Shown one piece after another: positions 33,634 to 48,443 of a DNA stretch of 64,000 nucleotides (position 1 is the first letter of the stretch; every line of letters starts with the position of its first letter). A model generated the notes under the pieces. It saw nothing but the letters and a program-made list of their open reading frames with translations. It did no database searches and was not told the origin of the DNA. The position numbers and the translations under genes are program-made. Where the stretch lies: positions 62,001 through 126,000 of the forward strand of contig CANNDF010000005.1 in NCBI GenBank assembly GCA_947503305.1, in the 5' to 3' direction. This DNA comes from an uncultured Dokdonia sp. (lineage in GTDB: Bacteria; Bacteroidota; Bacteroidia; Flavobacteriales; Flavobacteriaceae).

Positions 33634-36600
33634 ATGGCAAAAAAGGTTCTATTTTATGTTTTTCTGATCGGTAGTCTGTCCGTTGTATATGCACAAGACG
33701 GTGGAGGTAGTAGTTTTAATTATGAAAATGAGCTCTCACAACGAGCATCAGTCCCGCAATCTCCGGAAGCAGCAGCCTTTGCTCGTTATGGGGATGTAGC
33801 TGTAAATATGTATGCAGGACTCCCCAATATCCAAGTCCCTATATATACCCATAAAGGACGAGAACTGGATGTCCCTATAGGACTTAGCTATGATGCCAGT
33901 GGGGTCAAAGTAAATCAAATGGCAACCCCTGTGGGATTGGGGTGGAACCTTAATGTAGGCGGGCGTATCTCAAGACAGGTCAATGGCCTTCCAGATGATT
34001 TTCATCCGGAACTTTCCAATGGTCCGTATAAATCCTGGTATGATGCTGAGGTTCGTACCGAAATGGAAAAATACCTCAATCCCTCGCATTACTTCAGACC
34101 AAATAGTAATGGATCTCATGTCTATGCTACCGAAAACGATGCCCGCGACTACCTGGAGTTTTTAGAAAAAGTACATACCCAAGCCTATGAAACCCAACCG
34201 GATATCTATACCATTAATGCGATGGGACTCAATGAGACCTTTACCATTGACTACGTGTCTAAAACACCTGTGCCTTTACACAATCCTAATATCAAAATTG
34301 AAATCACCGGAGGAGGTACTGCCATCGCTAGCGGAGGCGGTATCGTATCATTTAAAGTCACCAGTGACAACGGTACCGAATATTATTTTGACGCTGTAGA
34401 GCAAACCGAAAACCTCAAAGATAATGACAGTGGTTCCAACTTCTTTTACGGGACCCGTGTGCGTTTTACCTCTTCCTGGTACTTGACCAAAGTGGTATCA
34501 CCCCTGAGTAAAGACACCTATGAGTTTGAGTATGCTACCTATACCGATCACCGGGATGATCCTGTAAGCAATATAGCCACAGAAGCCACAACACTTATAC
34601 ATCCGGAACACAGCAATACCACCCTACAAAACGCCAATACGTCTGTCAAATTTTTTAATCGAAAAGTGATCTCCAAAATCCGTCATAATGATAAGGTCTT
34701 TGCAACCTTTACCAGTAACAGCGGGCATCTGGGAGGTCCAGATCTTGCCATTACAGGAATCAGTATCCATCCTGATGGGAATATGACTTCTGGATTGGGA
34801 CTAAGCAAGCGGTATGACCTTACCTATTCCTATTTTAAAACAAGCTCTGGAGTAGCGATAAATCTTGCTAACAAGCTTCAGTTACGATTAAAACTGGATG
34901 AGGTAATTATCAAAGATGCTTCTTCTCAGGAAGTAAGTGATTATACCTTTGAGTATATAGACCCTTTTGAACTCCCCAGTCTAACATCTACAGGACAGGA
35001 CTATTTGGGCTTTTATAACGGGATCAACACCAATAACGGACTTATTCCCAGCACATCAACAAATGAAGATCATTACCCATTTTCCTATGGAATGTCCTTC
35101 CCGGGATCCAGTTCTGGAGCCAATAGAAGTGCTAATTTTAATTTTGCCAAAAAAGGGCTGTTAGAAAAAATTACCTACCCTACCGGAGGTCATACTACCT
35201 TTGAATATGAAGGGGCAGAACACCTTATCTACGAGTCTTCCAGCGAAACTACCCTAATTACAAAGGCCACTCTCAGTAACCAGAATCTCACCCTTCCTGC
35301 GGTAGATCTCGATCTGTGTAATCGCGTGTCCTATCCGTTAGGAGGAGCCCCCGAAGAGATAAGTCCCAATGTGCAATCTTATAGTTTTGAGATAGGCGGT
35401 ACAGATGAAGGACCCCATACGATTACCTATACAAAGAGTTTTACAAATTCAGATCCTATAGGCCTTTCTGTAGAACCTAGTCAGGCGGTACTCATCAGAA
35501 AAGAAGATCCTACAATCACCTATACATGGGACACAATTTTTAATGGAGATTGTGAGGTGATAGATCCATCACAAATCGTATGGACCTATGACGACCAACA
35601 ACCCGCTACCGCAGCAACAAGCACTATTTTTCTGGAGGAAGGACATTTTCAGATCCTTCTCCCATTTTTCAGAACCAATACCAGTAAGACAGTCACTATA
35701 GAAGGACCTGAGACTACCCATACGTCTATTGCTGTTCCTAAAGAGCGCGCCGGGATACGCATTAACACTATTAAAGACTATAAAGATGCTTCGACCATTA
35801 CCCGTCAAAAGGAGTATAGCTATAATCAAACCCGACAGATTACCAATCCTACTTTTGAATATATTACCAATGAACGTCACCATAGTGTCAATGCAGCAGG
35901 GGTAGAAAACCAGGTAGATTACCAGCAATTACACCGACTGGCACAGCCTATGTTTGGAGGAACTGAGCATATCGTATATCCCTCGGTGACCGAGCGTATT
36001 GTAGATCCTGCAAACCCTACAGAAACCCTCTATAAAAATTACCGTTTTAACACTCCGAGTGCTGGTAATAGTATCTACTATAAAGGCTCTTATAATACTA
36101 CCTTGTCAAGTGGTGTATACTCGGCCTCTCACTATAGCAAACTCCCTGCTTTTGGGAGTGTGACCAAAGAAAGTACGGCCACCACAAGTTCAGAAAATAC
36201 CTATGATGAGTATCCTCGACTCCACTATCAAAATTTTGGAATGGCAGTAGCCGCTACTGGAACCAATAGTAACCTCTACCCTACCATTGTAACAAATACA
36301 GTCCCCGGACAAGGAGGGTATCGTATCCAGTTTTCAACTCCTAAATATACTCCAACGGTAGGTGGAGCACCACCACAAGCAGGACCACCAGATGCCTGTA
36401 ATGGGGAAGAAAACTGTCGGCCAGAGATTGCACGATTGATGCTTCATAAAACCTATATCTATGGATATCACGGGAGTGAGGTCGTACAAAGCAGTAGTAC
36501 CAAAGACGCAGTGACCATCACTAGTTACTACACCTATTCTCAGGGACACCGTCGGTATCTAAAGACTATGACAACCCAAGGCACAGGAAGTGCGCCACAA

Positions 36601-37323
36601 AAAACAGAATACTACTACCCATATGAGATTATCGACTATCCAGAACATGATAATGATGGGGAGATCGACTGTACAGACATTACCCTACCCGACGGAACGG
36701 TGATCCAACTGTGTGAAGATGGACTGCCCAATACTGGAGGCTCCTATGTATATGAACCGTTAATTACTGCCAATATGCTCAACCAGCCTGTAGGCGTACA
36801 GCAATATGACGGTACAGACGATCGCCCGGTATCTACGGTATTTACGGCCTATAATAATGACAAACAACCTGAAACCATCAGTACTGCAAAAGGCAACGGG
36901 CCTTTTGAAACCCGAATGACTTTTGAACAGTATGAAGCAGGTAATCTTGTACAGGCACGACAGATCGATGGAACCCCCGTCACCTTTATATGGGGATATA
37001 ACGAGCGCTATGTCATTGCCAAAATAAGCAATATGGAGTATGACAATCTCCCGGCATCGCTAGTTACAACGATAAAAAACAATGCCGATACGGGTACCGA
37101 AGCAGCGCTCCTGACAAGTTTAGAAACTTTACAAAGTGACAGTGTGCTGGTCGATAGCCAGATGTCCTATTATACCTACAAACCCAATATAGGCGTGAGT
37201 ACCGTCACAGATCCTACGGGTTATAGGATGCATTATTTTTATGACCCCTCCCAGCGCCTGCAACATGTAGAAGACCATGATGGAAATATCTTAAGTGAGA
37301 ACGAGTATAATTATAAAAACTAA
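33634..37323 (+). CDS. Large exported RHS-like protein (N-terminal partner)
   Basis: A 1229-aa exported protein (signal FLIGSLSVVYAQDGG). The opening SPEAAAFARYGDVAVNMYAG and GLSYDASGVKVNQMATPVGL are typical of Bacteroidota RHS proteins that form the start of a beta-cocoon. YD-type repeats appear late (YNDKQPETISTAKGN, YTYKPNIGVSTVTDPTGYRM). It ends without an RHS core or toxin tip (LSENEYNYKN). The next gene starts 7 bp later and continues the RHS theme, so the two proteins may form one split shell. No T9SS C-terminal sorting domain was recognised. Confidence 0.82.
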   Translation: MAKKVLFYVFLIGSLSVVYAQDGGGSSFNYENELSQRASVPQSPEAAAFARYGDVAVNMYAGLPNIQVPIYTHKGRELDVPIGLSYDASGVKVNQMATPVGLGWNLNVGGRISRQVNGLPDDFHPELSNGPYKSWYDAEVRTEMEKYLNPSHYFRPNSNGSHVYATENDARDYLEFLEKVHTQAYETQPDIYTINAMGLNETFTIDYVSKTPVPLHNPNIKIEITGGGTAIASGGGIVSFKVTSDNGTEYYFDAVEQTENLKDNDSGSNFFYGTRVRFTSSWYLTKVVSPLSKDTYEFEYATYTDHRDDPVSNIATEATTLIHPEHSNTTLQNANTSVKFFNRKVISKIRHNDKVFATFTSNSGHLGGPDLAITGISIHPDGNMTSGLGLSKRYDLTYSYFKTSSGVAINLANKLQLRLKLDEVIIKDASSQEVSDYTFEYIDPFELPSLTSTGQDYLGFYNGINTNNGLIPSTSTNEDHYPFSYGMSFPGSSSGANRSANFNFAKKGLLEKITYPTGGHTTFEYEGAEHLIYESSSETTLITKATLSNQNLTLPAVDLDLCNRVSYPLGGAPEEISPNVQSYSFEIGGTDEGPHTITYTKSFTNSDPIGLSVEPSQAVLIRKEDPTITYTWDTIFNGDCEVIDPSQIVWTYDDQQPATAATSTIFLEEGHFQILLPFFRTNTSKTVTIEGPETTHTSIAVPKERAGIRINTIKDYKDASTITRQKEYSYNQTRQITNPTFEYITNERHHSVNAAGVENQVDYQQLHRLAQPMFGGTEHIVYPSVTERIVDPANPTETLYKNYRFNTPSAGNSIYYKGSYNTTLSSGVYSASHYSKLPAFGSVTKESTATTSSENTYDEYPRLHYQNFGMAVAATGTNSNLYPTIVTNTVPGQGGYRIQFSTPKYTPTVGGAPPQAGPPDACNGEENCRPEIARLMLHKTYIYGYHGSEVVQSSSTKDAVTITSYYTYSQGHRRYLKTMTTQGTGSAPQKTEYYYPYEIIDYPEHDNDGEIDCTDITLPDGTVIQLCEDGLPNTGGSYVYEPLITANMLNQPVGVQQYDGTDDRPVSTVFTAYNNDKQPETISTAKGNGPFETRMTFEQYEAGNLVQARQIDGTPVTFIWGYNERYVIAKISNMEYDNLPASLVTTIKNNADTGTEAALLTSLETLQSDSVLVDSQMSYYTYKPNIGVSTVTDPTGYRMHYFYDPSQRLQHVEDHDGNILSENEYNYKN

Positions 37324-37330
37324 TAGCACC

Positions 37331-40300
37331 ATGAAAAAGATTTTATTTGTAGTGCTAGTAGCACTCCCGACCTTCCTTTTTGGACAAACTACCACACAGA
37401 ACTATGTAAAGAGTACCGTATATGAAGTACCTGTTACCGCAGGACAGCAGACTACGGTCTCTGATGATGATAAGATAGAAAGCGTTACCTATTATGACGG
37501 ACTGGGAAGACCTATCCAGAGTGTGGCACAACGCGCCGCTATAGGAGATCGTGACCTTGTAACCATTACCGAGTATGATGCCTTTGGGAGAACTCCCAGA
37601 CAATATTTACCACAGAGTGTATCAAACAATCACGGGAACTACCGCTCCCATGAAGGGGTAAAAACGGCCATTAATGCCTATTACAGTGCCCGATATCCCG
37701 AGGATGCTATAAGCCCTGGAGTGATCAATGCCTATAGCGAGACCCTTTTTGAAGATAGCTGGGGCAGTCGTGTTATAGAACAAGGCGCGCCTGGAGCCAC
37801 ATGGGCACTAGATCCTACGACAGATACCGATCATACCACAAAAAATGAATACCTCAGTAATTCTAAGACACATCATGCCGACGGACTACTTAGTATAGGG
37901 GATGATGTTGCTCACTTTGTCGTAAGCTTCCCAGGAGATAACCTAATGGATCCCCAACTGGAATATACGGGAACCTATGAGGCACAGCAGCTCTTTAAAA
38001 GCATTACCAAAGACGAAAACTGGACGCCTGCCAGTGAGAAAGACCATACGGTAGAACGTTTTACCAATGACCGAGGACAGCTACTTTTAAAACGTACCTA
38101 TGCAAACAACATCCCTCATGATACCTATTATGTATATGACCATTATGGCAATCTCACTTTTGTATTACCTCCCGAAGCGACCGATGCGATATTAAGTAAT
38201 TTTAGATATGAGGCATCAAGCCAGTATATCCCACACAATGATTTTTACCGTCCCAAAGAGGATAATGGGCAAGGTAGCGGAGGGTGCCAGGTGACGATCG
38301 CTGGTGATCTTATAGTTGCAGACTTTGATATTACCTTTTCTCCTGGCAACAAATTGCGTAATGGGGTGTACGGGAGTGCATTACAACTACCTGACCTTGT
38401 AGTGGCAAATCTTCTTTTTCCAGAAAATCCTGTAGCCAGCTATCGTTTACAGGTACAGAACCAGCAACTATACCTTGACGGTGATGGGCATGTGAGTGGT
38501 ATCCAGGAACTCGTATCGATGCAATTACCAGTACAGACAGGAACGGTAAGTCCCGATATAATTGCACAACTGGGGTATGAATATCATTATGACCATCGCA
38601 ATCGCGTGGTTGAGAAAAAAATCCCACAAAAAGCATGGGAGTATATCGTATATGACAAACTGGACCGTCCTGTACTTGTACAAAGCGGTAATCTAAGAAC
38701 GCAGGATCAATGGCTGTTTACCAAGTATGATGCTCTGGGGCGTGTGACGTATACGGGGATCTATACCTTTAACGGGAGTTGTACCACCACAGGTACCACC
38801 TCAAAAAACGGAGACCAGAAAGACCCCAACGTAAAATGGAAAAATGCCAATCTGAGTCACATCCCTAGTAGCGTTTCTGATAACTGTAAGCGCCTCACAT
38901 TACAAGAGACCATAAATACCGAGACGGTACTTTATGAATCTAAAACCAGCCCCTATACCCTAGATGGAACGATGCTCTATTACACCAACCAGGCATTCCC
39001 AAGGGTACAGCTGGAGTTGCATAGTGTGAGTTATTACGATACTTATGATTTTGACTGGGACTATGCAGGGGCATTGTCCAATCCTTCCAGTGCCGATGCC
39101 TATGGACAGACCAAAACCCCATCGACCAAGGGCATGCCTACCGGAGGAAAAATACGTACCCTGGGTACTAATGACTGGACGGTAAGTTATATGGTCTATG
39201 ATTACAAACGCAGACCTATTTATACAGCCAGTTATACTAAGTATCTGGATACAAAAGACATAGGACGCACCCATCTGGATTTTGCCGGACGTACACTGGA
39301 AAGTGAGGCACAGCATACCAAAGGGACCAATGCCACCATCACCACTCATGATTATTTTACCTATGATGTACAGGGACGACTGTTACGTCATGAGCAACAG
39401 ATGGACAATGACCCTCGGGAGCTTATTGTAAGCAATACCTATGATGCCATCGGGCTCTTAGAACAAAAACAAGTAGGAGGCGCCATATCTGATGCAGATG
39501 GTCTGCAACAGGTAGACTATACCTATAATATACGGGGCTGGATGCGAGGTATTAATGGAGCTATGATTGACAACCCTACCCAGCAAACCAATGATCTGTT
39601 TGGGTTTAAGATCAATTACCATACAAAAGAGTTGTCCAGCAATCTGGGGGACCCTCTTTATAATGGAAACATCAGTGAGACCCTATGGCGTACGGCAAAT
39701 ACCGATACAGGGGTCAAGGGCTATGTATACAGATACGATGCCCTCAACCGTCTGGAAGATGCCCTATTGCATATCAAAGATCCGGGAGCGACAGATTTTA
39801 GTAATACCCGTGCCTATGGCGAAAAAATAAATGGGTATGATAAAAACGGGAATATCCTGGAACTCTACAGAACAGGCCCTATGCTACCCGATGGGATTCA
39901 TGCCGAAGTATGGGATGATCTGGATTATAATTATAATGGAAACCAGTTGACCGCTGTACGCGAAAAAGACTTCAGCACGTATGATGTACGTCAAGAAGGC
40001 TTTCAAGATGGTACTGGTTTAAGCACACAGATAGACTATACCTATGATGTAGATGGTAACCTACTTACAGACAGCAATAAAAATATTACAAATATTACGT
40101 ATAATCATTTGAATTTACCCACAGGAATCACCACACCCGAAGGAACAATTACGTATATTTATGATGCAGGAGGATCCAAGCTCGCAAAGACCGTCACTCC
40201 TAATGGAGTTACCCCTAGTACCAAAAGCTATGCAGGTGGGTATATCTATACCGATGACGTATTGAGTATGATCTCCCAGCCCGAAGGCTATATTACGCCC

Positions 40301-41833
40301 GATGGAAGTTCTTATACATACGCCTATACCTATACCGACCATCTTGGGAACAAGCGGCTTACGTATCAGGATACTCAAAGTGAGTTAAGTAATGAGAGCT
40401 TTACTACTACCACAGAAGGCTGGAACCGCTATGGAAGTACAACCAGTACCACTATTGTCAATGGGCATATTTTGGTAGAAACCACCATGCCTAGCAGAGG
40501 TATCTGGAAGCAATATGCATTAGGTGCCGATGCCGATACTTTTACCATTACTATAGACGCCCAGCGCTCTGATGATTTTAATCTCTTTCTGACATTTAAT
40601 CAGTATAGTGCCTCGGGTACAAATCTAGGAACTTTATATGTACATAACCTCCCAGACGGTGCTTACACAAAGAGTATCCCATTACATGAAAACACAGCTT
40701 CTGTAAGGATTCATATACGAAGCCTGGGTCCAGAGACAGAAGGAATAAGCTCTTTTGAGATAGACAGTATCATGATAGACACCTCTATTCTGGAGATTAT
40801 AGAAGAAAACAACTACTTCCCTTTTGGATTGAAACACAAAGGGTATAATGATCTCGTAAGTGCAAACGTAAATCCTGTGGCTAGTACTTTTGGGTATAAC
40901 GGGATGGAGCAAAGTGAGGAGTTAGGACTCAATACTTTAGATTTTGGCGCTCGTAATTACGACCCTGCTATAGGACGATGGATGAATATCGATCCTCTGG
41001 CAGAACAAATGCGACGTCACTCACCCTATAACTATGCGTTTAACAATCCTGTTTTCTTTATCGATCCCGATGGAATGCGTTCCTATGGAGGAGACTTTAT
41101 GACCACAGCTGGACGTACAGGAGGTAATGGACCTGGATTACTAGAAGAAGGGGAAGAAGAAGAACCAGAAGAAGAAGAGGATAAAGAGGAAGAAAACTCC
41201 AGCGAGGATACTACTTCTAGTGAAAATGATGACTCTGCTAATAGTGATGGAGATACTTCTTCTTGTGATGATTGTACTAAATGTCCTGAGACTTGTGGTA
41301 ATGCATCTGTTAAAACAGATAATACAGAAGAATCTCAATGGGATAATTCTTCAATGGCATGGGCTTTGGGCACATCGGGAGTTTTACTAGCAGATGATGC
41401 TACAGGAATAGGTGTGCTAGACGATATTGCGATTCCTTTTGTTCTTGCAGGCGGATCAATAGCTTATTTATATGACAATGCTGATTTATTAGCAAAACAA
41501 GCAAAAGAGATTAATAAAATACTCGAAAAGAATCTTGGTGGTGCTGGCTTTTCATATGAATTGAGAGCTACTAAAAGTGGATTATACCCAATAATGACTA
41601 GAGGTAGCTCTATACCAACTGGTTATACGCATCTAAATGTTGGTGATGTATGGAAATATGGGGAAACCTCTAAAGGCTTTAGTAGATATTCTGGATTAGC
41701 TGAATCTAATTTGGTTATGATACCTATATTTTACGGTACAATTCCTGAAATAAAAGTACAAGAAAAGATTATGATTTATAGCTATGCGCTTATTAATGGT
41801 AAATTACCCCCAGGAAATAAAATATTTAGATAA
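37331..41833 (+). CDS. RHS repeat-associated core protein with probable GIY-YIG/URI-type nuclease tip
   Basis: A 1500-aa exported polymorphic toxin from the ATG at 37331 (VLVALPTFLFGQ signal). In order: a DUF6443-like start (SVTYYDGLGRPIQSVAQ), many YD repeats (YDALGRVTYTGIYTF, YDYKRRPIYTASY), a carbohydrate-binding-like insertion at about 1025-1150, the RHS core at about 1156-1248 ([20 protein letters not shown]), an acidic Glu/Asp/Ser linker at about 1270-1333, then the variable tip. The tip contains VWKYGETSKGFSRYSG, a late Glu (VQEKIMIYSY) and GKLPPGNKIF, matching the pattern of GIY-YIG/URI-fold nuclease toxins. Base composition shifts to very AT-rich after about 41.1 kb. Confidence 0.85.
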   Translation: MKKILFVVLVALPTFLFGQTTTQNYVKSTVYEVPVTAGQQTTVSDDDKIESVTYYDGLGRPIQSVAQRAAIGDRDLVTITEYDAFGRTPRQYLPQSVSNNHGNYRSHEGVKTAINAYYSARYPEDAISPGVINAYSETLFEDSWGSRVIEQGAPGATWALDPTTDTDHTTKNEYLSNSKTHHADGLLSIGDDVAHFVVSFPGDNLMDPQLEYTGTYEAQQLFKSITKDENWTPASEKDHTVERFTNDRGQLLLKRTYANNIPHDTYYVYDHYGNLTFVLPPEATDAILSNFRYEASSQYIPHNDFYRPKEDNGQGSGGCQVTIAGDLIVADFDITFSPGNKLRNGVYGSALQLPDLVVANLLFPENPVASYRLQVQNQQLYLDGDGHVSGIQELVSMQLPVQTGTVSPDIIAQLGYEYHYDHRNRVVEKKIPQKAWEYIVYDKLDRPVLVQSGNLRTQDQWLFTKYDALGRVTYTGIYTFNGSCTTTGTTSKNGDQKDPNVKWKNANLSHIPSSVSDNCKRLTLQETINTETVLYESKTSPYTLDGTMLYYTNQAFPRVQLELHSVSYYDTYDFDWDYAGALSNPSSADAYGQTKTPSTKGMPTGGKIRTLGTNDWTVSYMVYDYKRRPIYTASYTKYLDTKDIGRTHLDFAGRTLESEAQHTKGTNATITTHDYFTYDVQGRLLRHEQQMDNDPRELIVSNTYDAIGLLEQKQVGGAISDADGLQQVDYTYNIRGWMRGINGAMIDNPTQQTNDLFGFKINYHTKELSSNLGDPLYNGNISETLWRTANTDTGVKGYVYRYDALNRLEDALLHIKDPGATDFSNTRAYGEKINGYDKNGNILELYRTGPMLPDGIHAEVWDDLDYNYNGNQLTAVREKDFSTYDVRQEGFQDGTGLSTQIDYTYDVDGNLLTDSNKNITNITYNHLNLPTGITTPEGTITYIYDAGGSKLAKTVTPNGVTPSTKSYAGGYIYTDDVLSMISQPEGYITPDGSSYTYAYTYTDHLGNKRLTYQDTQSELSNESFTTTTEGWNRYGSTTSTTIVNGHILVETTMPSRGIWKQYALGADADTFTITIDAQRSDDFNLFLTFNQYSASGTNLGTLYVHNLPDGAYTKSIPLHENTASVRIHIRSLGPETEGISSFEIDSIMIDTSILEIIEENNYFPFGLKHKGYNDLVSANVNPVASTFGYNGMEQSEELGLNTLDFGARNYDPAIGRWMNIDPLAEQMRRHSPYNYAFNNPVFFIDPDGMRSYGGDFMTTAGRTGGNGPGLLEEGEEEEPEEEEDKEEENSSEDTTSSENDDSANSDGDTSSCDDCTKCPETCGNASVKTDNTEESQWDNSSMAWALGTSGVLLADDATGIGVLDDIAIPFVLAGGSIAYLYDNADLLAKQAKEINKILEKNLGGAGFSYELRATKSGLYPIMTRGSSIPTGYTHLNVGDVWKYGETSKGFSRYSGLAESNLVMIPIFYGTIPEIKVQEKIMIYSYALINGKLPPGNKIFR

Positions 41834-41839
41834 AAAATT

Positions 41840-42280
41840 ATGAAATTTAAACTTGGAATATCTGTGTCAAGAGAAGTAGATTCTGCTCTAATTATTAACA
41901 TATCTAATAAATTAGAGGATTTTTTTAACGAAGAAAATTATGGTGATGGAGTAAAAGGTATAACTATTGGCTTAATCTGTGTTAGTGAAAACTATGAAGC
42001 ATTTTTTAAAATAAATAAGCCAAAGTATACAAAAGAGAAAAAAGTAAAAGGAATTGATGGTATCACTTATTATACAGAAAACTCTTTTACTTATGATTGT
42101 AAGATTAATTTTAACACTTATCAAAGTGCTAATGATATCGGGAGAAAAAAACTTGTTTCTGAAAATATACTATCTATAAGTAAAGAAGTTTTTAAAAAGA
42201 AAAGAATAAAAGACTTTAATGAGGATGATTTTATAAAAGCTTTAGAAAGTTTTTTTATAAAAAAAGGTTATATAGAATAG
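41840..42280 (+). CDS. Predicted immunity protein for the RHS toxin tip
   Basis: A 146-aa cytosolic protein without a signal peptide, starting 6 bp after the toxin stop. The family was not recognised with certainty. The mixed alpha/beta pattern with a long strand segment (GVKGITIGLICVSENYEAFF) and Lys-rich C-terminus is common for immunity proteins. The assignment rests on position and on very AT-rich composition matching the toxin tip. It would neutralise the nuclease tip in the cytoplasm. Confidence 0.65.
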   Translation: MKFKLGISVSREVDSALIINISNKLEDFFNEENYGDGVKGITIGLICVSENYEAFFKINKPKYTKEKKVKGIDGITYYTENSFTYDCKINFNTYQSANDIGRKKLVSENILSISKEVFKKKRIKDFNEDDFIKALESFFIKKGYIE

Positions 42281-42310
42281 TATAGTAAAAAAGGTCATAA
42301 GTATAAATAA

Positions 42311-42354
42311 TTAATATCTAGCAGTCTAATATTTTAAAAACTGCTAGATATTAA
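42311..42354 (+). terminator. Hairpin after the cognate immunity gene
   Basis: TTAATATCTAGCAGT pairs exactly with ACTGCTAGATATTAA (15 bp, 14-nt loop). It may terminate the active RHS operon. No strong T-tract follows. Confidence 0.55.
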
Positions 42355-42462
42355 TGTTCTTTGAAATAAAAAATCCTCATTTTCTTTGGTTCTTTCTTTT
42401 TAAAAAGAAAGAACTCTTTAGAGTTTTAAAATCTATCGATTTTAAAACGTGCTGGAAGGAAT
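42355..42462 (+). repeat. Inter-cassette repeat, copy 1
   Basis: It starts TTCTTTGAAATAAAAAATCC, contains the inverted repeat TTCTTTCTTTTTAAAAAGAA and TTTAGAGTTTTAAAATC, and ends CGTGCTGGAAGGAAT. It is followed by a decayed RHS-core remnant (CACTTCCCTTTTGAATTGAA, compare CTACTTCCCTTTTGGATTGA at 40814). Confidence 0.8.
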
Positions 42463-42514
42463 TAACCACTTCCCTTTTGAATTGAAACACAAAAGAAGCC
42501 ACTGAGTATTCTGA

Positions 42515-42841
42515 AAAAGTAGTAGATGTCCAAATACAAATTGCACTCTTCCTTATGGGTTTATTGGGAAAGGAGGTATAATATTTAAAGGTCTTGGTTC
42601 TACTGGAAGGACAATAGCTAAAAATTTAGTTGAGCAGATGACAATGAAAAATATCGTCCAAAATCCAGCTCTTGGTAAAGTTATTATGGCTGGAGGACAT
42701 CATGGAGCTGCAGCAATGCAACGTCTAGGAGAAAAAACAATACCTACTGTTGTTAGACAATGGAGTAGTCTTTCTAAGGCAGTTCAACAAAGACTTTTAA
42801 ATAGCCCTAATGGTAAAGCTCTATCAAATTATTTAAAATGA
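42515..42841 (+). pseudogene. Orphan RHS toxin tail, cassette 1
   Basis: The frame is open from 42515 to TGA at 42839-42841, but no credible start exists. The ATG at 42638 used by the track is internal. The translation IIFKGLGSTGRTIAKNLVEQ then MTMKNIVQNPALGKVIM resembles the C-terminal tail of RHS toxins that begin with a G-S-x-GRT-x-x-x-L-x-EQ motif. A displaced RHS fragment lies just upstream at about 42450-42495. It overlaps the next gene's start (ATGATG), so it is a toxin-tail/immunity cassette without its delivery shell. Confidence 0.7.
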
Positions 42842-43128
42842 TGAAAAATTGGTACAAAGTAAGTAAATCCAATAAGAATATTTGCGGAAATTGTAATGGT
42901 CAATTTGAAGGATTACAATCTTTAGACCATCATTCAGGAATTTGTCCTGAATGTAGAATAGATTGTATATGGTTTTCTTTTAAAGATGATAAAACATTAC
43001 AAGTTATCCCTGAATATGCACCTAAAGGATTTCTAATATTCATCAGATGGGCACAAAAAGAATTAGATGAATTAGAATTTTTGGAATTGGTAGTTTCTTT
43101 TGAAGAAATCGCAAATGCTTTAAAATAA
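42838..43128 (+). CDS. Putative orphan immunity protein, cassette 1
   Basis: A 96-aa protein overlapping the toxin tail stop. It has two CxxC pairs (ICGNCNGQF and ICPECRIDC) that suggest a small zinc ribbon. No signal peptide, so cytosolic. Family not recognised. Assigned from position directly behind a toxin tail. Confidence 0.6.
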   Translation: MMKNWYKVSKSNKNICGNCNGQFEGLQSLDHHSGICPECRIDCIWFSFKDDKTLQVIPEYAPKGFLIFIRWAQKELDELEFLELVVSFEEIANALK

Positions 43129-43141
43129 AATTAGGTGTTAG

Positions 43142-43186
43142 TGTAGTAAAAAAGGCCATGGGTTAAGACATGATTATAAATAGCTA
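43142..43186 (+). repeat. Array-boundary repeat, internal copy
   Basis: GTAGTAAAAAAGGCCATGGG followed by TTAAGACATGATTATAAATA. It is closely matched at 48350-48395 (TTTAGTAAAAAAGTCATGAG, then CTAAGGCATGGTTATAAATA) and more weakly at 42281-42310. A hairpin (ATCAATAGT/ACTATTGGT) follows at about 43190-43225. Confidence 0.7.
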
Positions 43187-43275
43187 GAAATCAATAGTTA
43201 GATTAAAATTTGACTATTGGTTTTTATCGTTCATTGATATATTGGCAGAAGTAAAAATTACAAAAGAACTCTTAA

Positions 43276-44325
43276 AATAAAGATTCTTTAAATCGGTGTG
43301 AGTCAATTAGGTCATCATTTTTTTCGCGAAAGCGTATTGTTTTTGGTTACAATGGTAAAGAACAAAGTGAAGAGCTAGGTTTAAATACCTTAGACTTTGG
43401 GGCTCGTAATTACGACCCTGCTATAGGACGATGGATGAACATTGATCCTCTGGCAGAACAAATGCGTAGACATAGCCCTTATAACTATGCGTTTAACAAT
43501 CCAGTGTTCTTTATTGATCCCGATGGGATGGCGCCCGCATCTTTTGGATGGGCTAGCTGTATCTCATGTGGTAATGATGAAAAAGATGAGGGAGAAGGTA
43601 TTGAAGAAGAGCATGAACGTAATAGAGAATCTGTTAGAGATGATGTTGCTGCAAAAAAAATAGTTAATAATTTCAGCAAGCTTGGAACAAACAACAACTC
43701 TGAATTTTCTATATTTAATGCTATTCCTAATCTAGATGGATATAATATTTCTAATGGAAAAATTGGTTCAGATGAATTTAATGAACAAACCGGTTATGAT
43801 AGTGAACTAGGCACTGAATCTATGCTAGAACGACGCAATAGTTACTTAAAACAAACTCTTGAAGAAATACTTGACATGAATGAAATATTAAGTACAGGAA
43901 AAGATGTATTACAGGTTGTAGCGAGTGGGGATGTACCTGGTATTACATTAAAAGAAATTGCTGGTTCTCCATTTGCCATGCACGAAAATGGTGCAGGTGG
44001 TATTCCTTTAATTGGAGGTTTATTTTCTGAAATGGCAAAAGATCAATCAAATGGAGAAGCTTTTTTCTCAAATCAAAATGTATGGGATAAAGCTTTTCAA
44101 GGACTATCAGGTTTAAATTCTATTAATGATTTTAGTAATACTAATATGGTGGTAATTCATTCTAATATTGCATTAATGGAAGGTTTTTATAAATCTTCTA
44201 GGTTTGAGCATGTCGGCATAAATAACCAAGGAGGTAATTATAACTGGATTCATGTCGGTGCTCAAGTAGGAAAAAATATAACAATTTACTTTTCAATTAA
44301 AAACAATGCAAAATTTAAAGATTAA
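43276..44325 (+). pseudogene. Orphan RHS core fragment with alternative toxin tip, cassette 2
   Basis: The frame is open from 43276. RHS homology starts near 43342 ([20 protein letters not shown]) and runs through the core end ([16 protein letters not shown]), then switches to a tip of about 265 aa unlike the intact one ([20 protein letters not shown] near the middle, then the C-terminus [15 protein letters not shown]). The ATG at 43435 is internal to the core, so no proper start or signal peptide exists. Toxin activity was not recognised. A decayed GCGAAAGCG palindrome lies right at the breakpoint (43322-43334). Confidence 0.8.
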
Positions 44326-45031
44326 CTACTTTCTACTTCTATGTTTTTTCTTAAGCATTCTTATATCTTGTACTAACGATGCAAAAAAGATGCTAGAAAC
44401 TTCAAAAAAAATTCAAACTGACACATTACAGTATATTCATAATGCTGATGATTTTTTGGGACATCCAAAAGTTAGAACAAAAGAAATATACAGAGCTGGT
44501 TTGGTAATAGACACTATTAATTGGAAAAAAAATCCACCTTTTGACAGTATTATAGTAAAAAAAAGAAATAATATATTTTGGATTGCATATCAGGATCAAG
44601 GCGAAATAGTGTTAAAGTATCCTAATAAATCTTATGAAGTTTGCAGAACTAGAATAGATTCCAATGGTATTAAAAATAATTTCATTCCATTTTATAATGA
44701 AAATGGGATTGATTATTTCAGGTTATTTATAGATAATAAAAATGAAGTTTTAATTAACCTAAATTCTAACGCCCTTGCAGGTATTAATACTACTAGTAGT
44801 AAATATAAATATTTTAGTTCATTTTATAAGGACACAGGCATCCCTGAAATGCTTAAGCTTATCCATAACAATGGTGAGCATAATATTAATATTTCTTTTT
44901 ACAAAAACTCTAAAATTAAATCTATAATTTATGGTAAGCCCTTTAAACCAATTAAAACATATATGTTTGATGAAAGTGGCGTATTAAGTGTACAAGATGG
45001 AGATAATCCCAGTGTAATTTATAATAGATAG
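44306..45031 (+). CDS. Putative immunity lipoprotein, cassette 2
   Basis: A 241-aa lipoprotein ([18 protein letters not shown]) whose start overlaps the end of the orphan toxin fragment by 20 bp. The mature protein has repeated strand-rich segments ending in [18 protein letters not shown], as in MORN/antitoxin-like beta-sheet proteins, but the family is not recognised. Its exported location suggests that the matching toxin tip acts in the periplasm or at the cell surface. Assigned from position. Confidence 0.6.
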
Positions 45032-45139
45032 TAAAATGTCATATTATATTAAATCTATCCAATGCATCTATAAGATATTCAAAATAGGACATAGCTTAAA
45101 GACTGAAAATAACTAATACGTTGATTGCTGTTCCTCTTA

Positions 45140-45222
45140 GCTCTTTGACAAAATATTTTTCTAAGAGTTTTAAAATTGAAAGGTTTTTATAAAAACCTTT
45201 CAATTTTAAAAGAATTTCCCAT
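45140..45222 (+). repeat. Inter-cassette repeat, copy 2
   Basis: It starts GCTCTTTGACAAAATATTTT. The inverted repeat AAAATTGAAAGGTTTTTATA is followed by its reverse complement to TTTTAAAA. Similar arms occur in copy 5 (47667-47704). Confidence 0.75.
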
Positions 45223-45236
45223 AAAATAAATTTAAA

Positions 45237-45488
45237 ATGAATAAAACTGAACTTAAAAGAAAATTAACTGCTTTAGACGTTAATTATCAAGAGTATTCCT
45301 TAGATGGAGAATTAATATCTGATAACATTATTTTATATAATTCTTATCATACTTGGGACGTATTTTATCTTGATGAAAGAGGTGATAGGCACGAGGAAAA
45401 GAGTTTCTCTTCTGAAAAAGAGGCCTGCGAATACATCTATAAATTGTTTAAAGAGTCGAAAGAAATAGAAAAAAAATATTTGAAATAA
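45237..45488 (+). CDS. Putative orphan immunity protein, cassette 3
   Basis: An 83-aa acidic cytosolic protein containing WDVFYLDERGDRHEEKSF and EACEYIYKLF. From memory this layout recurs as a small hypothetical protein next to RHS toxins, possibly an immunity family, but I cannot name it. A clear toxin tail directly before it was not found; only copy 2 of the repeat precedes it. Confidence 0.55.
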   Translation: MNKTELKRKLTALDVNYQEYSLDGELISDNIILYNSYHTWDVFYLDERGDRHEEKSFSSEKEACEYIYKLFKESKEIEKKYLK

Positions 45489-45566
45489 TAGATATCAATT
45501 TTAAATAAAGCTTACCATGCTAATTTAATAGAGGTAATGTACCAGAAACACTACTTGTATTAACAA

Positions 45567-45625
45567 GTTCTTTGAAAATATTTTTCTTTAGTTCTTTCTT
45601 TTTAAAAAGAAAGAACTCCCTAAAG
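45567..45625 (+). repeat. Inter-cassette repeat, copy 3
   Basis: GTTCTTTGAAAATATTTTTC leading to the inverted repeat GTTCTTTCTTTTTAAAAAGA, then AAGAACTCCC. It is the shortest copy. Confidence 0.75.
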
Positions 45626-45744
45626 CCACTCCAATAAAGTTTGGAATAGTGGGGTCACAAGGACTAAACCATTCTGGAGGATCATTACAATTTTTGGTGC
45701 TTTCCAAAAATGTTACAAATCAATCATCAAAAATTATAGACTAA
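45619..45744 (+). pseudogene. Orphan toxin tail, cassette 4
   Basis: This frame has no start and begins right after repeat copy 3. It encodes a short tail (TPIKFGIVGSQGLNHSGGSL, then FLVLSKNVTNQSSKIID) and ends with TAA at 45742-45744, which overlaps the ATG of the following gene as TAATG. The toxin family is not recognised. The overlap with a small gene is the basis of the call. Confidence 0.55.
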
Positions 45745-46124
45745 TGAAAAGCAAAGAAACTCCCAAAGATTTTGACATTAATAAAAAAATTAACCAAACT
45801 GAAATTACATACACTAATTTAAAGGAGATTGTGCAAGGAGGTCCCGAGATTGGTACTATATCAATTAATGGAATTTCTCTAAAAGGTGATTTTGGTGGCC
45901 CTTGTATATATGCTAATGGAAATTTATATGCCCCCAATTATGTTAGAAAATTTTTTGGACGAGGATTTAGACTTGCTAAAATAAACATACAAACTTTAAA
46001 AATAGAATATCTAACTAAAATTAAAAGTCTCATTTATCTTCAAAAAATCGAAAGGGGCGAAATTTATTTTTTTGAAGATTTAAACGAGCGATATTTAAGA
46101 CGAATAAATATTGAAAGCAAGTAA
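45744..46124 (+). CDS. Putative orphan immunity protein, cassette 4
   Basis: A 126-aa cytosolic protein (MKSKETPKDFDINKKINQTE). It is beta-rich, with ISINGISLKGDFGGPCIYAN in the middle. Start overlaps the preceding toxin tail stop by one base. No family recognised. Very AT-rich like its neighbours. Confidence 0.58.
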   Translation: MKSKETPKDFDINKKINQTEITYTNLKEIVQGGPEIGTISINGISLKGDFGGPCIYANGNLYAPNYVRKFFGRGFRLAKINIQTLKIEYLTKIKSLIYLQKIERGEIYFFEDLNERYLRRINIESK

Positions 46125-46178
46125 TTATTATTCAAACTCTTATATAAACTCAAATGCTCTCTCATACAAACTAAGGGA

Positions 46179-46265
46179 TTTTTAAATGCTGAGAGGTACA
46201 TATTACAAACTAGAGGCTGGATATATAACTCAAATAAAAGAGCGTGGTTACCTCCTGGATATTAA
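46179..46265 (+). pseudogene. Possible toxin tail before cassette 5
   Basis: A start-less frame reading AERYILQTRGWIYNSNKRAW then LPPGY stop ends 10 bp before the ATG at 46276. Terminal LPPG-type endings are common in RHS toxin tips. Weak: the reading is short and another frame is also open here. Confidence 0.3.
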
Positions 46266-46275
46266 AATAAATATT

Positions 46276-46827
46276 ATGGAATTTAATAACCAAATTTTCA
46301 AAAAACTAAATTCATTTTTTATAGAAAATGAATTTACACTAACAGAAGAAACAAATCAAATAATAAAATATCAATCAGATAAATTGATAATATCTATAGT
46401 TTATAATTCAAGAGAAAATTCTAATTCCCTTTGGTTAGGATCAGATTATTTAAAGAATTTTATTGAAATAGATAATGAGTTATTAAAGATTTTTTTTGAT
46501 TCTGATTTAAAACTTGAAAATCAACCTAAAGATATTTTTGTAAATAAAGTGCTATTATTTTTTAAAGGGCCAGGAGAAAACATTTTAAAGGGTGATGAAA
46601 AAACAATTATAAATCTTGAGAAATTTAAAAAAGACCAGAGCGAAAAATATACCTCAGAACTATTAGATAATCAAAATTTAGAAGCAGCTAATACAGCATG
46701 GAAGGAAGGTAACTATATTGATGTGATTAAGTATTTAAAAAAAGTAGATAAAAAAAGAATATCAGATACTTTTAAAAAGAAATATAAAATTGCTCAAAAA
46801 AAAACTTCCTCTAATACTGAAAGATGA
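46276..46827 (+). CDS. Putative orphan immunity protein, cassette 5
   Basis: A 183-aa cytosolic protein. I use ATG 46276 (MEFNNQIFKKLNSFFIENEF) rather than the track start at 46186, whose first 30 residues do not look like part of the fold. The N-terminal half (about 1-110) has an immunity-like alpha/beta pattern, and the C-terminal 60 residues are helical and lysine-rich (AANTAWKEGNYIDVIKYLKK, TPR-like). Family unknown. Confidence 0.55.
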   Translation: MEFNNQIFKKLNSFFIENEFTLTEETNQIIKYQSDKLIISIVYNSRENSNSLWLGSDYLKNFIEIDNELLKIFFDSDLKLENQPKDIFVNKVLLFFKGPGENILKGDEKTIINLEKFKKDQSEKYTSELLDNQNLEAANTAWKEGNYIDVIKYLKKVDKKRISDTFKKKYKIAQKKTSSNTER

Positions 46828-46862
46828 TACATACTCAAAGCTTTCATTAGAAAACTCATCAA

Positions 46863-46938
46863 AGTTCTTTGAAATAGAAATCCTCATTTTCTTTGGTTCT
46901 TCCTTTTTAAAAAGAAAGAACTCTTAAGAGTTTTAAAA
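46863..46938 (+). repeat. Inter-cassette repeat, copy 4
   Basis: TTCTTTGAAATAGAAATCCT leading to TTCTTCCTTTTTAAAAAGAA and CTCTTAAGAGTTTTAAAATA. It is very similar to copy 1. Confidence 0.8.
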
Positions 46939-46951
46939 TAAATTTAAAATA

Positions 46952-47086
46952 AAAAAGACAAATAAAGATGAATTCGAACTTTTCTATATTTCACTATCTT
47001 ATAACACAAGATACAGTAAATATTTTCCTAAAGAGTGGAAGAATAAGTGGATGGAGGCTAGTAAGTGGGATTCAATAAATAAATAA
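46952..47086 (+). pseudogene. Orphan toxin tail, cassette 6
   Basis: This frame has no start (open from 46937) and follows repeat copy 4. It reads FELFYISLSYNTRYSKYFPK then EWKNKWMEASKWDSINK and stops at 47084-47086, 12 bp before the next gene. The Trp-rich tail looks like the end of a folded domain. Toxin family not recognised. Confidence 0.5.
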
Positions 47087-47098
47087 ATAGTTATTCTT

Positions 47099-47527
47099 AT
47101 GAAGTATTTATTATTATTATTATTTGTAAGTCATTGTACTTATTCCCAAAAAAGTGAATTTTTAAAGGGTAAAATAACTAAGGTAATATCACCGATACAA
47201 TTTGTACTTACAGATTCGATTGAAAGAAATCATAGAATTTATTTAGATGATATAAAACTATATGATAATGATTCAATTAATCTAAAGGCAGTAGATTTTG
47301 TTAATTCTAAAATTTCGAAAAAAACTGTGTATTTTTCTAAAATTAAAGTAAAAGATCAAAAATTGTATGGATACATATTGTATGAATGTATTGGGGATGA
47401 TAGCTATGACTTTGGAGAAGGTGATATTCCTTGTATTACAGGAAATATTTTAAATGTTGATTTAATGGTGAATAAATATGTGAAATATATAGGCTCTGAT
47501 GATTTTTTTAAAAGTATTAGTCAATGA
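47099..47527 (+). CDS. Putative exported immunity protein with SNase-like fold, cassette 6
   Basis: A 142-aa protein with a signal peptide (MKYLLLLLFVSHCTYSQ). The mature part has the strand order of staphylococcal-nuclease-like domains: GKITKVISPIQFVLTDSIER, IYLDDIKLYD, a helix, KTVYFSKIKVKDQKLYGYIL, then ILNVDLMVNKYVKYIG. The catalytic Arg/Asp/Glu set of active nucleases is not apparent, so it is a probable non-catalytic OB fold. It lies behind an orphan toxin tail. Export implies action outside the cytoplasm. Confidence 0.5.
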   Translation: MKYLLLLLFVSHCTYSQKSEFLKGKITKVISPIQFVLTDSIERNHRIYLDDIKLYDNDSINLKAVDFVNSKISKKTVYFSKIKVKDQKLYGYILYECIGDDSYDFGEGDIPCITGNILNVDLMVNKYVKYIGSDDFFKSISQ

Positions 47528-47595
47528 TTAGTTGATATCACGTCAAGACCGTTACTTTTAATGATATGTAAAGCTTTCTAATGAAAGCTAAAAGT

Positions 47596-47719
47596 TGTTC
47601 TTTGACAAACAATTTTCTTTGGTTGGTTCTTTCTTTTTAAAAAGAAAGAATTCTTTAGAGTTTTAAAATCGATAGGTTTTTATAAAAACCTTTCAATTTT
47701 AAAACGTGCTGGAAGGAAT
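47596..47719 (+). repeat. Inter-cassette repeat, copy 5
   Basis: The most complete copy: GTTCTTTGACAAACAATTTT, GTTCTTTCTTTTTAAAAAGA, TTTAGAGTTTTAAAATCGAT, the AGGTTTTTATAAAAACCT hairpin and the shared end CGTGCTGGAAGGAAT. Confidence 0.8.
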
Positions 47720-47879
47720 GAAAGATTCGAGATGGCTTGTATATGCCAAATTCATTCCTGCAAGTGGTCAGTTAAAATTTGGATTTGTTGGGCTAAATAG
47801 AACTACAGGTAACATTACAACATTTCATATTAAATCCTTAAGAGAATTAGTAAAAAAATCTGGAGGTATTTTTAAATAA
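47718..47879 (+). pseudogene. Orphan toxin tail, cassette 7 (53 codons)
   Basis: Too short for the ORF track. It reads MKDSRWLVYAKFIPASGQLK, then FGFVGLNRTTGNITTFHIKS, LRELVKKSGGIFK. It begins exactly where repeat copy 5 ends, so the ATG is probably accidental and this is a severed toxin tip. It stops 13 bp before the following gene. Family not recognised. Confidence 0.55.
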
Positions 47880-47892
47880 ATTATAAGTCTTA

Positions 47893-48252
47893 ATGATCAA
47901 CATAATCAAAATAAAATGGCTATCACATATTTCCGAAGAAGCCATAATTGTATTATCTGACGGAAACTTTGAAATAAACTGTTTTTCGCATCCATTCAAA
48001 AGTCTAATGGACTTTGAATTAACCTTACCCTTAAGTACTTTGAATGCGAATAATATCAAAAAAGTGGATGAACAAAAGTATTCATATAGCTGTGATGGTA
48101 ATTACCATTATTTGACTGTGAAAGTGATTGATAAGGAAAAGCCACTTGTTGTTTTAGGTGATTTTAAGATAGAACTCGATAATATTCTACCATACGATAT
48201 TTCAGAAGGAGATTTCATTTTCATTCTATGCGATAGACTGGATATTTTCTAA
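47893..48252 (+). CDS. Putative orphan immunity protein, cassette 7
   Basis: A 119-aa cytosolic beta-rich protein (WLSHISEEAIIVLSDGNFEI, with a conserved-looking CFSHPF motif, ending DFIFILCDRLDIF). It resembles small flavobacterial proteins found behind toxin tips, but no family can be named. It is the last cassette before the boundary repeat. Confidence 0.58.
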   Translation: MINIIKIKWLSHISEEAIIVLSDGNFEINCFSHPFKSLMDFELTLPLSTLNANNIKKVDEQKYSYSCDGNYHYLTVKVIDKEKPLVVLGDFKIELDNILPYDISEGDFIFILCDRLDIF

Positions 48253-48349
48253 AGTTTGAATGAATCCACCCTTCTGATTAGATGAAATAAGAATAGTGAA
48301 TAAACAGTTGGGGAACAGGTCGTATCATATAAGATACCTTCTGTTGGTC

Positions 48350-48412
48350 GTTTAGTAAAAAAGTCATGAGCTAAGGCATGGTTATAAATAGGTAGCCACT
48401 TTAGCGAAAGCG
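48350..48412 (+). repeat. Array-boundary repeat, right-hand copy
   Basis: It matches the 43142 copy, as described there, and is also followed by a decayed dispersed palindrome (TTTAGCGAAAGCGTA, 48400-48414), as the 43142 copy is. It marks the right edge of the cassette array 30 bp before the folD stop. Confidence 0.7.
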
Positions 48413-48443
48413 TACCTATTCCTACTAAAACATCGTTCTCCAA

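What the first reader, a model, noticed from the sequence alone, without database searches (positions are those of the whole stretch)
41840..48443. Array of orphan toxin-tail/immunity cassettes behind an intact RHS toxin
Behind one intact exported RHS toxin and its immunity gene, about 6 kb of AT-rich DNA holds at least five start-less toxin tails or RHS-core fragments (42515, 43276, 45619, 46952, 47718, and possibly 46179). Seven small genes follow, none alike (42838, 44306, 45237, 45744, 46276, 47099, 47893). Most small genes overlap or closely follow a toxin-tail stop (ATGATG at 42838, TAATG at 45744). This is the signature of a polymorphic-toxin locus that keeps silent tips and a bank of immunity genes. 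Two immunity candidates are exported (44306, 47099) and the others cytosolic, suggesting tips that act in different compartments. Seen: frames, overlaps and signals. Inferred: immunity function.
Basis: partly seen in the sequence, partly recalled or inferred. Interest (0 to 1): 0.8.

Follow-up and report, generated by a model that had tools for sequence, protein, structure and literature searches.

The report
Toxin-immunity graveyard with rRNA-style antitermination signals
Behind a working bacterial toxin gene lies a row of intact antidote genes whose own toxins have mostly been cut down to stubs, and most of the junctions carry a copy of a signal that normally keeps ribosomal-RNA transcription going, which suggests a way for the old antidotes to stay switched on.

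Summary
41840-48443 (28% GC against 43% in the RHS genes) holds an RHS toxin, its Imm44-family immunity gene and seven further small genes. Four of the six 'tails' are only 28-58 residue C-terminal stubs. Three of these (45613, 46167, 47703) match the very ends of tips on RHS-core genes elsewhere that are followed by the same small gene. The tail at 46937 matches a small membrane protein, not a toxin. Only 43276-44325 keeps RHS core in frame and could be switched on by recombination. So this is mainly a bank of retained immunity genes left by sequential displacement, a known kind of locus, rather than a store of silent tips. Two things look new. First, an AT-rich palindromic spacer found, within this genome, only in RHS arrays. 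Second, a hairpin-plus-GYTCWTTGANA module 37-144 nt after 20 of 27 candidate immunity genes genome-wide (1 of 127 control ORF ends). It matches the hairpin-boxA signals of the same genome's rRNA operon, and a congener's RHS array also has it. I propose that it lets RNA polymerase run through untranslated toxin remnants to express the banked immunity genes. That function is inferred, not shown.

The parts
33634..37323 (+). first gene of the two-gene RHS locus (1229 aa, signal-peptide-like start), overlaps the next
   Evidence: ORF; no Pfam match; partner role inferred from overlap
37295..41833 (+). intact RHS toxin gene (1512 aa), DUF6443, RHS core, tip at about 41420-41833
   Evidence: tip homologues end full or partial RHS frames in L080 and L081
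41840..42280 (+). I0, cognate immunity gene, Imm44
   Evidence: PF15571 at cut-off; same pair in L080 and L081
42311..42366 (+). boundary 1 hairpin and boxA-like box GTTCTTTGAAA (box 42356-42366)
   Evidence: fold -18.5 kcal/mol
42389..42448 (.). boundary 1 palindromic spacer (two palindromes)
42455..42493 (+). 39-nt scrap of RHS core (NYFPFGLKHK motif), closed by a stop
42515..42841 (+). T1, start-less fragment: shared pre-toxin linker GRTxAKNLxEQxxMK plus about 50-aa end
   Evidence: linker matches tips in L085 and L148
42838..43128 (+). I1, candidate immunity gene with two CxxC pairs
   Evidence: position, ATGATG overlap; no family above cut-off
43185..43239 (+). boundary 2 hairpin and boxA-like GTTCATTGATATATTGG (box 43229-43239), 16 of 17 identical to the rrn spacer boxA region
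43276..44325 (+). T2, orphan RHS core + tip, start-less, in frame with the live core
   Evidence: TIGR03696 E=2.9e-17; 62 of 64 core residues identical
44306..45031 (+). I2, lipoprotein-like candidate immunity gene
   Evidence: sequence (LSILISC); only a weak relative (L094)
45140..45150 (+). boundary 3 boxA-like GCTCTTTGACA
45164..45211 (.). boundary 3 44-nt perfect palindrome (first palindrome missing)
45237..45488 (+). I3, candidate immunity gene without any toxin remnant
   Evidence: relatives in RHS/immunity arrays L086 and L088
45567..45577 (+). boundary 4 boxA-like GTTCTTTGAAA, hairpin upstream
45590..45617 (.). boundary 4 palindrome
45613..45744 (+). T4 stub, last about 43 residues of an RHS tip
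   Evidence: 60% identical to the end of a 1189-aa RHS frame in L147
45744..46124 (+). I4, candidate immunity gene, full length against relatives
   Evidence: relatives 6 nt after the intact T4 tips in L142 and L147
46167..46265 (+). T5 stub, last 32 of 99 tip residues
   Evidence: 69% identical to the end of a 2172-aa RHS frame in L079
46276..46827 (+). I5, candidate immunity gene, full length
   Evidence: 51-53% to the gene after the T5 tip in L078
46864..46874 (+). boundary 6 boxA-like GTTCTTTGAAA (no strong hairpin)
46896..46921 (.). boundary 6 palindrome
46937..47086 (+). T6 stub, end of a small membrane-anchored protein, not an RHS tip
   Evidence: relatives of 149-165 aa in L082 and L084
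47099..47527 (+). I6, secreted-type candidate immunity gene
   Evidence: relative follows the T6 relative in the L082 RHS locus
47597..47607 (+). boundary 7 boxA-like GTTCTTTGACA, hairpin upstream
47627..47705 (.). boundary 7 palindromic spacer (two palindromes)
47703..47879 (+). T7 stub, last about 44-58 residues of an RHS tip
   Evidence: end of a 1234-aa RHS frame in L143
47893..48252 (+). I7, candidate immunity gene, full length; no box follows it
   Evidence: 48% to the gene 15 nt after the T7 tip in L143

Best explanation
The locus is an RHS polymorphic-toxin gene with a bank of older immunity genes behind it. Each time a new tip + immunity cassette was joined to the RHS core, the old one was pushed downstream; over time the old tips lost their 5' parts while the immunity genes stayed whole. 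(Shown: stubs, intact genes, matching intact pairs elsewhere. Inferred: the order and the recombination.) Most boundaries keep a fixed module: immunity stop, hairpin, boxA-like GYTCWTTGANA, and in many cases an AT-rich palindrome. The hairpin-boxA part looks like the signal this genome carries before its 16S and 23S genes. (Sequence match shown; antitermination function inferred.) I propose that polymerase entering from the RHS gene, or leaking past the hairpin, is made resistant to Rho there and so transcribes across untranslated remnants into the next immunity gene. The cell would stay protected against siblings and rivals that still carry the old tips.
For: T0/I0, T4/I4, T5/I5 and T7/I7 recur as intact pairs on RHS-core genes elsewhere. 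Immunity candidates align nearly full length while tails cover a third to a half of the tip. Same-genome arrays have the same layout. Box after 20 of 27 candidate immunity ends against 0 of 45 and 1 of 82 controls (P about 3e-18, assuming independence). Position 11 is A in 22 of 22 boxes while position 10 varies, matching the published degenerate position in GYTCTTTAANA (PMC5725501). Strong hairpin directly upstream at 16 of 22 against 1 of 13 control boxes and 6% of random windows. Both rrn copies have the same hairpin-box order. Flanks fall into 14 upstream and 9 downstream classes, so the box is not kept only by recent copying. A congener array repeats it twice. No promoter-consensus excess before the immunity genes.
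Against: No expression data. Some boundaries lack the box (46124) or a strong hairpin (45140, 46864). Several hairpins are followed by T-runs and may be ordinary terminators. RHS arrays of other genera show no strand bias or enrichment of the box. Part of the recurrence is shared ancestry of boundaries, so the P values overstate it. The list of 27 immunity ends was chosen by hand from ORF maps. One boxA-like copy lies near a tRNA gene outside any known RHS core.
Confidence: 0.6

Rival explanations
1. Plain sequential-displacement graveyard: stubs and immunity genes are left-overs, and the boundary sequences are only terminators and repeats carried along by homologous recombination, with no antitermination role.
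For: Layout matches the published V. cholerae model (PMC5361080). Boundary repeats recur across same-genome arrays. Many hairpins resemble terminators. Other genera have arrays without the box.
Against: The box is conserved while its flanks diverge into 14 and 9 classes, keeps the A at position 11, and matches rrn boxA including the hairpin order. Immunity genes stay intact, which argues for use.
Confidence: 0.33
2. Reservoir of silent tips for switching: recombination in shared core sequence fuses an orphan tip to the live gene.
For: T2 keeps 190 nt of core at 85% identity in the same frame; orphan Rhs expression has been selected in Salmonella (PMC3967940).
Against: Four of six tails are stubs without core; only T2 qualifies in this window.
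Confidence: 0.15
3. Palindromic spacers are attC-like or REP-like recombination sites that drive cassette gain.
For: Locus-restricted palindromes sit where stubs begin; orphan cores in one same-genome array restart at the same core position.
Against: No recombinase beside the array in the ORF lists; junction ends vary and one boundary lacks the palindrome; shared restart points can also come from recombination between units.
Confidence: 0.12
4. The boundary module is a promoter for each orphan immunity gene.
For: TTTG-rich sequence; Bacteroidetes promoters use TTTG boxes (own knowledge).
Against: No strict consensus in the array and background density with one mismatch (0.91 against 0.84 per kb); sigma-70-like sites not above shuffles.
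Confidence: 0.1

Closest known systems
Orphan immunity arrays by sequential effector displacement (V. cholerae T6SS, PMC5361080)
   Same: New effector-immunity modules push older ones 3'; effectors are lost or truncated, immunity genes retained
   Different: RHS host gene in another bacterial group; conserved hairpin-boxA module and palindromic spacers at the boundaries were not found described in the papers searched
Rhs C-terminal displacement and orphan rhs-CT/rhsI modules (Salmonella, PMC3967940)
   Same: Core-bearing orphan tip plus immunity gene behind the main rhs gene
   Different: Here most orphan tips are stubs; only T2 looks switchable
rAID systems of Bacteroidales (PMC12247911)
   Same: Co-oriented short immunity genes with conserved intergenic motifs
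   Different: No tyrosine recombinase seen beside the array; linked to an RHS toxin and toxin remnants
rrn boxB-boxA antitermination signals and boxA before CRISPR arrays (PMC10250234, PMC5725501, PMC7862264)
   Same: Hairpin then GYTCTTTRANA-type box, proposed to keep polymerase going over untranslated RNA
   Different: Repeated at most cassette boundaries of a toxin-immunity array; function untested

Membership tests
RHS polymorphic toxin locus | RHS core followed by variable C-terminal tip | tested here: met
   TIGR03696 in 37295-41833 and 43276-44325; unlike tips in relatives
RHS polymorphic toxin locus | cognate immunity gene directly downstream | tested here: met
   Imm44 at 41840, same pair elsewhere
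Orphan immunity array by displacement | immunity genes without intact toxin, related to immunity genes of intact pairs elsewhere | tested here: met
   I4, I5, I7; I6 by neighbourhood; I1-I3 not shown
Orphan immunity array by displacement | orphan genes neutralise the matching toxins | not testable with these tools
   needs binding or competition tests
rAID system | adjacent tyrosine recombinase | tested here: not met
   folD and ffh-like genes on one side, ROK and glyoxalase genes on the other; judged from ORF lists, no recombinase profile run on every ORF
boxA antitermination signal | match to the boxA-like sequence of the same genome's rRNA operons | tested here: met
   16 of 17 nt at 43229
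boxA antitermination signal | binds NusB-NusE and suppresses Rho termination | not testable with these tools
   needs binding and transcription assays
Integron cassette array | integrase gene and attC sites | tested here: inconclusive
   no integrase seen in ORF lists; attC structure not modelled

The most novel reading that the evidence does not exclude
A toxin-immunity array that has put rRNA-type hairpin-boxA antitermination signals at its cassette boundaries, so that displaced immunity genes stay expressed over untranslated toxin remnants.
Probability: 0.45. Interest if true: 0.82.

Novelty: new variant of a known kind. Interest (0 to 1): 0.62.

Why it matters
How orphan immunity genes without their own promoter stay expressed after their toxin has decayed is not explained by the displacement model. 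A repeated rrn-type signal at the boundaries gives a specific, testable answer and would add a new user of boxA beside rRNA, suhB and CRISPR arrays. It also warns that start-less tails in such arrays are often scars, not stored weapons.

Tried and rejected
Exact-repeat scan of 85,000 genomes found no copy of the 27-mer. Repeat search in 300 family genomes gave hits in other genomes not tied to RHS cores. Two weak relatives of T2 (G578, G588) turned out to be unrelated lipoprotein/TonB-type genes. A scan for T2 relatives in genome contigs found none. The structure of the live tip was of low confidence (pLDDT 38.6) and that of the intact T5 tip moderate at best (59.0), so no fold search was run and toxin activities are not named. 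Pfam gave no family for the intact relatives of the stubs. Rfam found nothing credible in the array. Promoter and terminator scans gave no excess; the terminator scan missed the AT-rich hairpins because it asks for G-C pairs. The first idea that the palindrome is unique to this array was dropped: diverged copies sit in other RHS arrays of the genome.

Full report
What was checked. The window lies in a 4.26-Mb draft genome (57 contigs). The array 41834-48252 has 28% GC, the RHS genes 43% and the genes after it 41%. The RHS gene 37295-41833 carries DUF6443 and an RHS core; the gene after it is Imm44 at the curated cut-off. No other small gene reaches a family cut-off.

Tails. I searched a joined query of all tips and small genes in 400 genomes of the family, and a shorter one in 398 of the order, then read the loci. 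The live tip and its immunity gene recur in L080 and L081. The 45613 stub is the end of RHS tips in L142 and L147, with the I4 relative 6 nt later. The 46167 stub is the last 32 of 99 tip residues in L078, L079, L086 and L087, with I5 relatives next to it. The 47703 stub is the end of a 1234-aa RHS frame in L143, followed 15 nt later by an I7 relative. The 46937 stub is the end of a 149-165 aa protein with a membrane-anchor-like N-terminus; its L082 relative stands in an RHS locus beside an I6 relative. T1 carries a linker seen before unrelated tips in L085 and L148. T2 has no relative found, but is a core-tip fragment in its own right.

Reading. Immunity candidates are whole while most tips are scars. 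This fits sequential displacement as published for V. cholerae (PMC5361080) and Rhs loci (PMC3967940). Only T2 could be switched on by core recombination: its core is in frame with the live gene and 62 of 64 residues are identical.

Boundary repeats. Palindrome TTCTTTCTTTTTAAAAAGAAAGAA occurs at four boundaries with zero expected; a second palindrome occurs at 45164 and 47657. A looser pattern finds ten copies in the whole genome, all in three RHS arrays, and none in 17 congeners. The genome has 17 RHS-core hits. Other arrays share the layout, and in one of them orphan cores restart at the same core position.

The box. After 20 of 27 candidate immunity ends a box G[TC]TC[AT]TTGA lies within 200 nt, against 0 of 45 and 1 of 82 control ORF ends. 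All 22 array boxes continue as GYTCWTTGANA, position 10 free and position 11 always A. The published gammaproteobacterial boxA is GYTCTTTAANA (PMC5725501). The genome's rRNA operon has GTTCATTGACATATTG about 175 nt before 16S and again before 23S. The 14-mer GTTCWTTGAMATAT occurs five times genome-wide: two rrn, two RHS boundaries, one inside a coding region on the other strand. A strong hairpin lies directly before the box at 16 of 22 boundaries, at 1 of 13 control boxes, and a hairpin also precedes both rrn boxes (-17.0 and -8.8 kcal/mol). This is the boxB-boxA order described for E. coli rrn (PMC10250234). A congener array (L198) has two such modules. Arrays of other genera do not.

Mechanism and limits. 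Shown: sequences, positions, statistics, matching pairs. Inferred: displacement order, immunity function of each orphan, antitermination. BoxA has been placed upstream of CRISPR arrays with increased array expression (PMC7862264), so the proposed use has precedent. Boundaries share ancestry, so the P values overstate the case; the split of flanks into 14 and 9 classes argues that the box itself is kept. The absence of the box after the last immunity gene here and in L137 fits a role for the gene that follows, but two cases are few.

Noticed in passing
L140 6723-6960 (G000 C2): A copy of the RHS 3' flank with a boxA-like GTTCATTGATATATT sits just behind a tRNA-Phe gene; it was not among the RHS-core hits of the genome.
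   Followed up: partly
L082 10188-10748 (reverse orientation of the locus): Beside an RHS locus, a split ORF resembling a REP-associated tyrosine transposase (own recognition, not searched) near a repeated GCGCTCGTTTGTAACGAGTGC hairpin.
   Followed up: no
L137 6903, 10519, 11469, 12240 (reverse orientation of the locus): Four orphan RHS fragments restart at the same core position (HPFQYxDH), each after a TTTTCGCGAAAGC-type repeat.
   Followed up: partly
43318 and 48410: CGCGAAAGCGTA / AGCGAAAGCGTA-type short repeats near array junctions; a similar one lies in the 16S-23S spacer.
   Followed up: no
942-989: A 48-nt perfect palindrome outside the array.
   Followed up: no
L133 8781-10098, L134 5025-5159, L140 13837-13942: Another repeat of about 105-130 nt shared by two RHS arrays and a third locus.
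   Followed up: no
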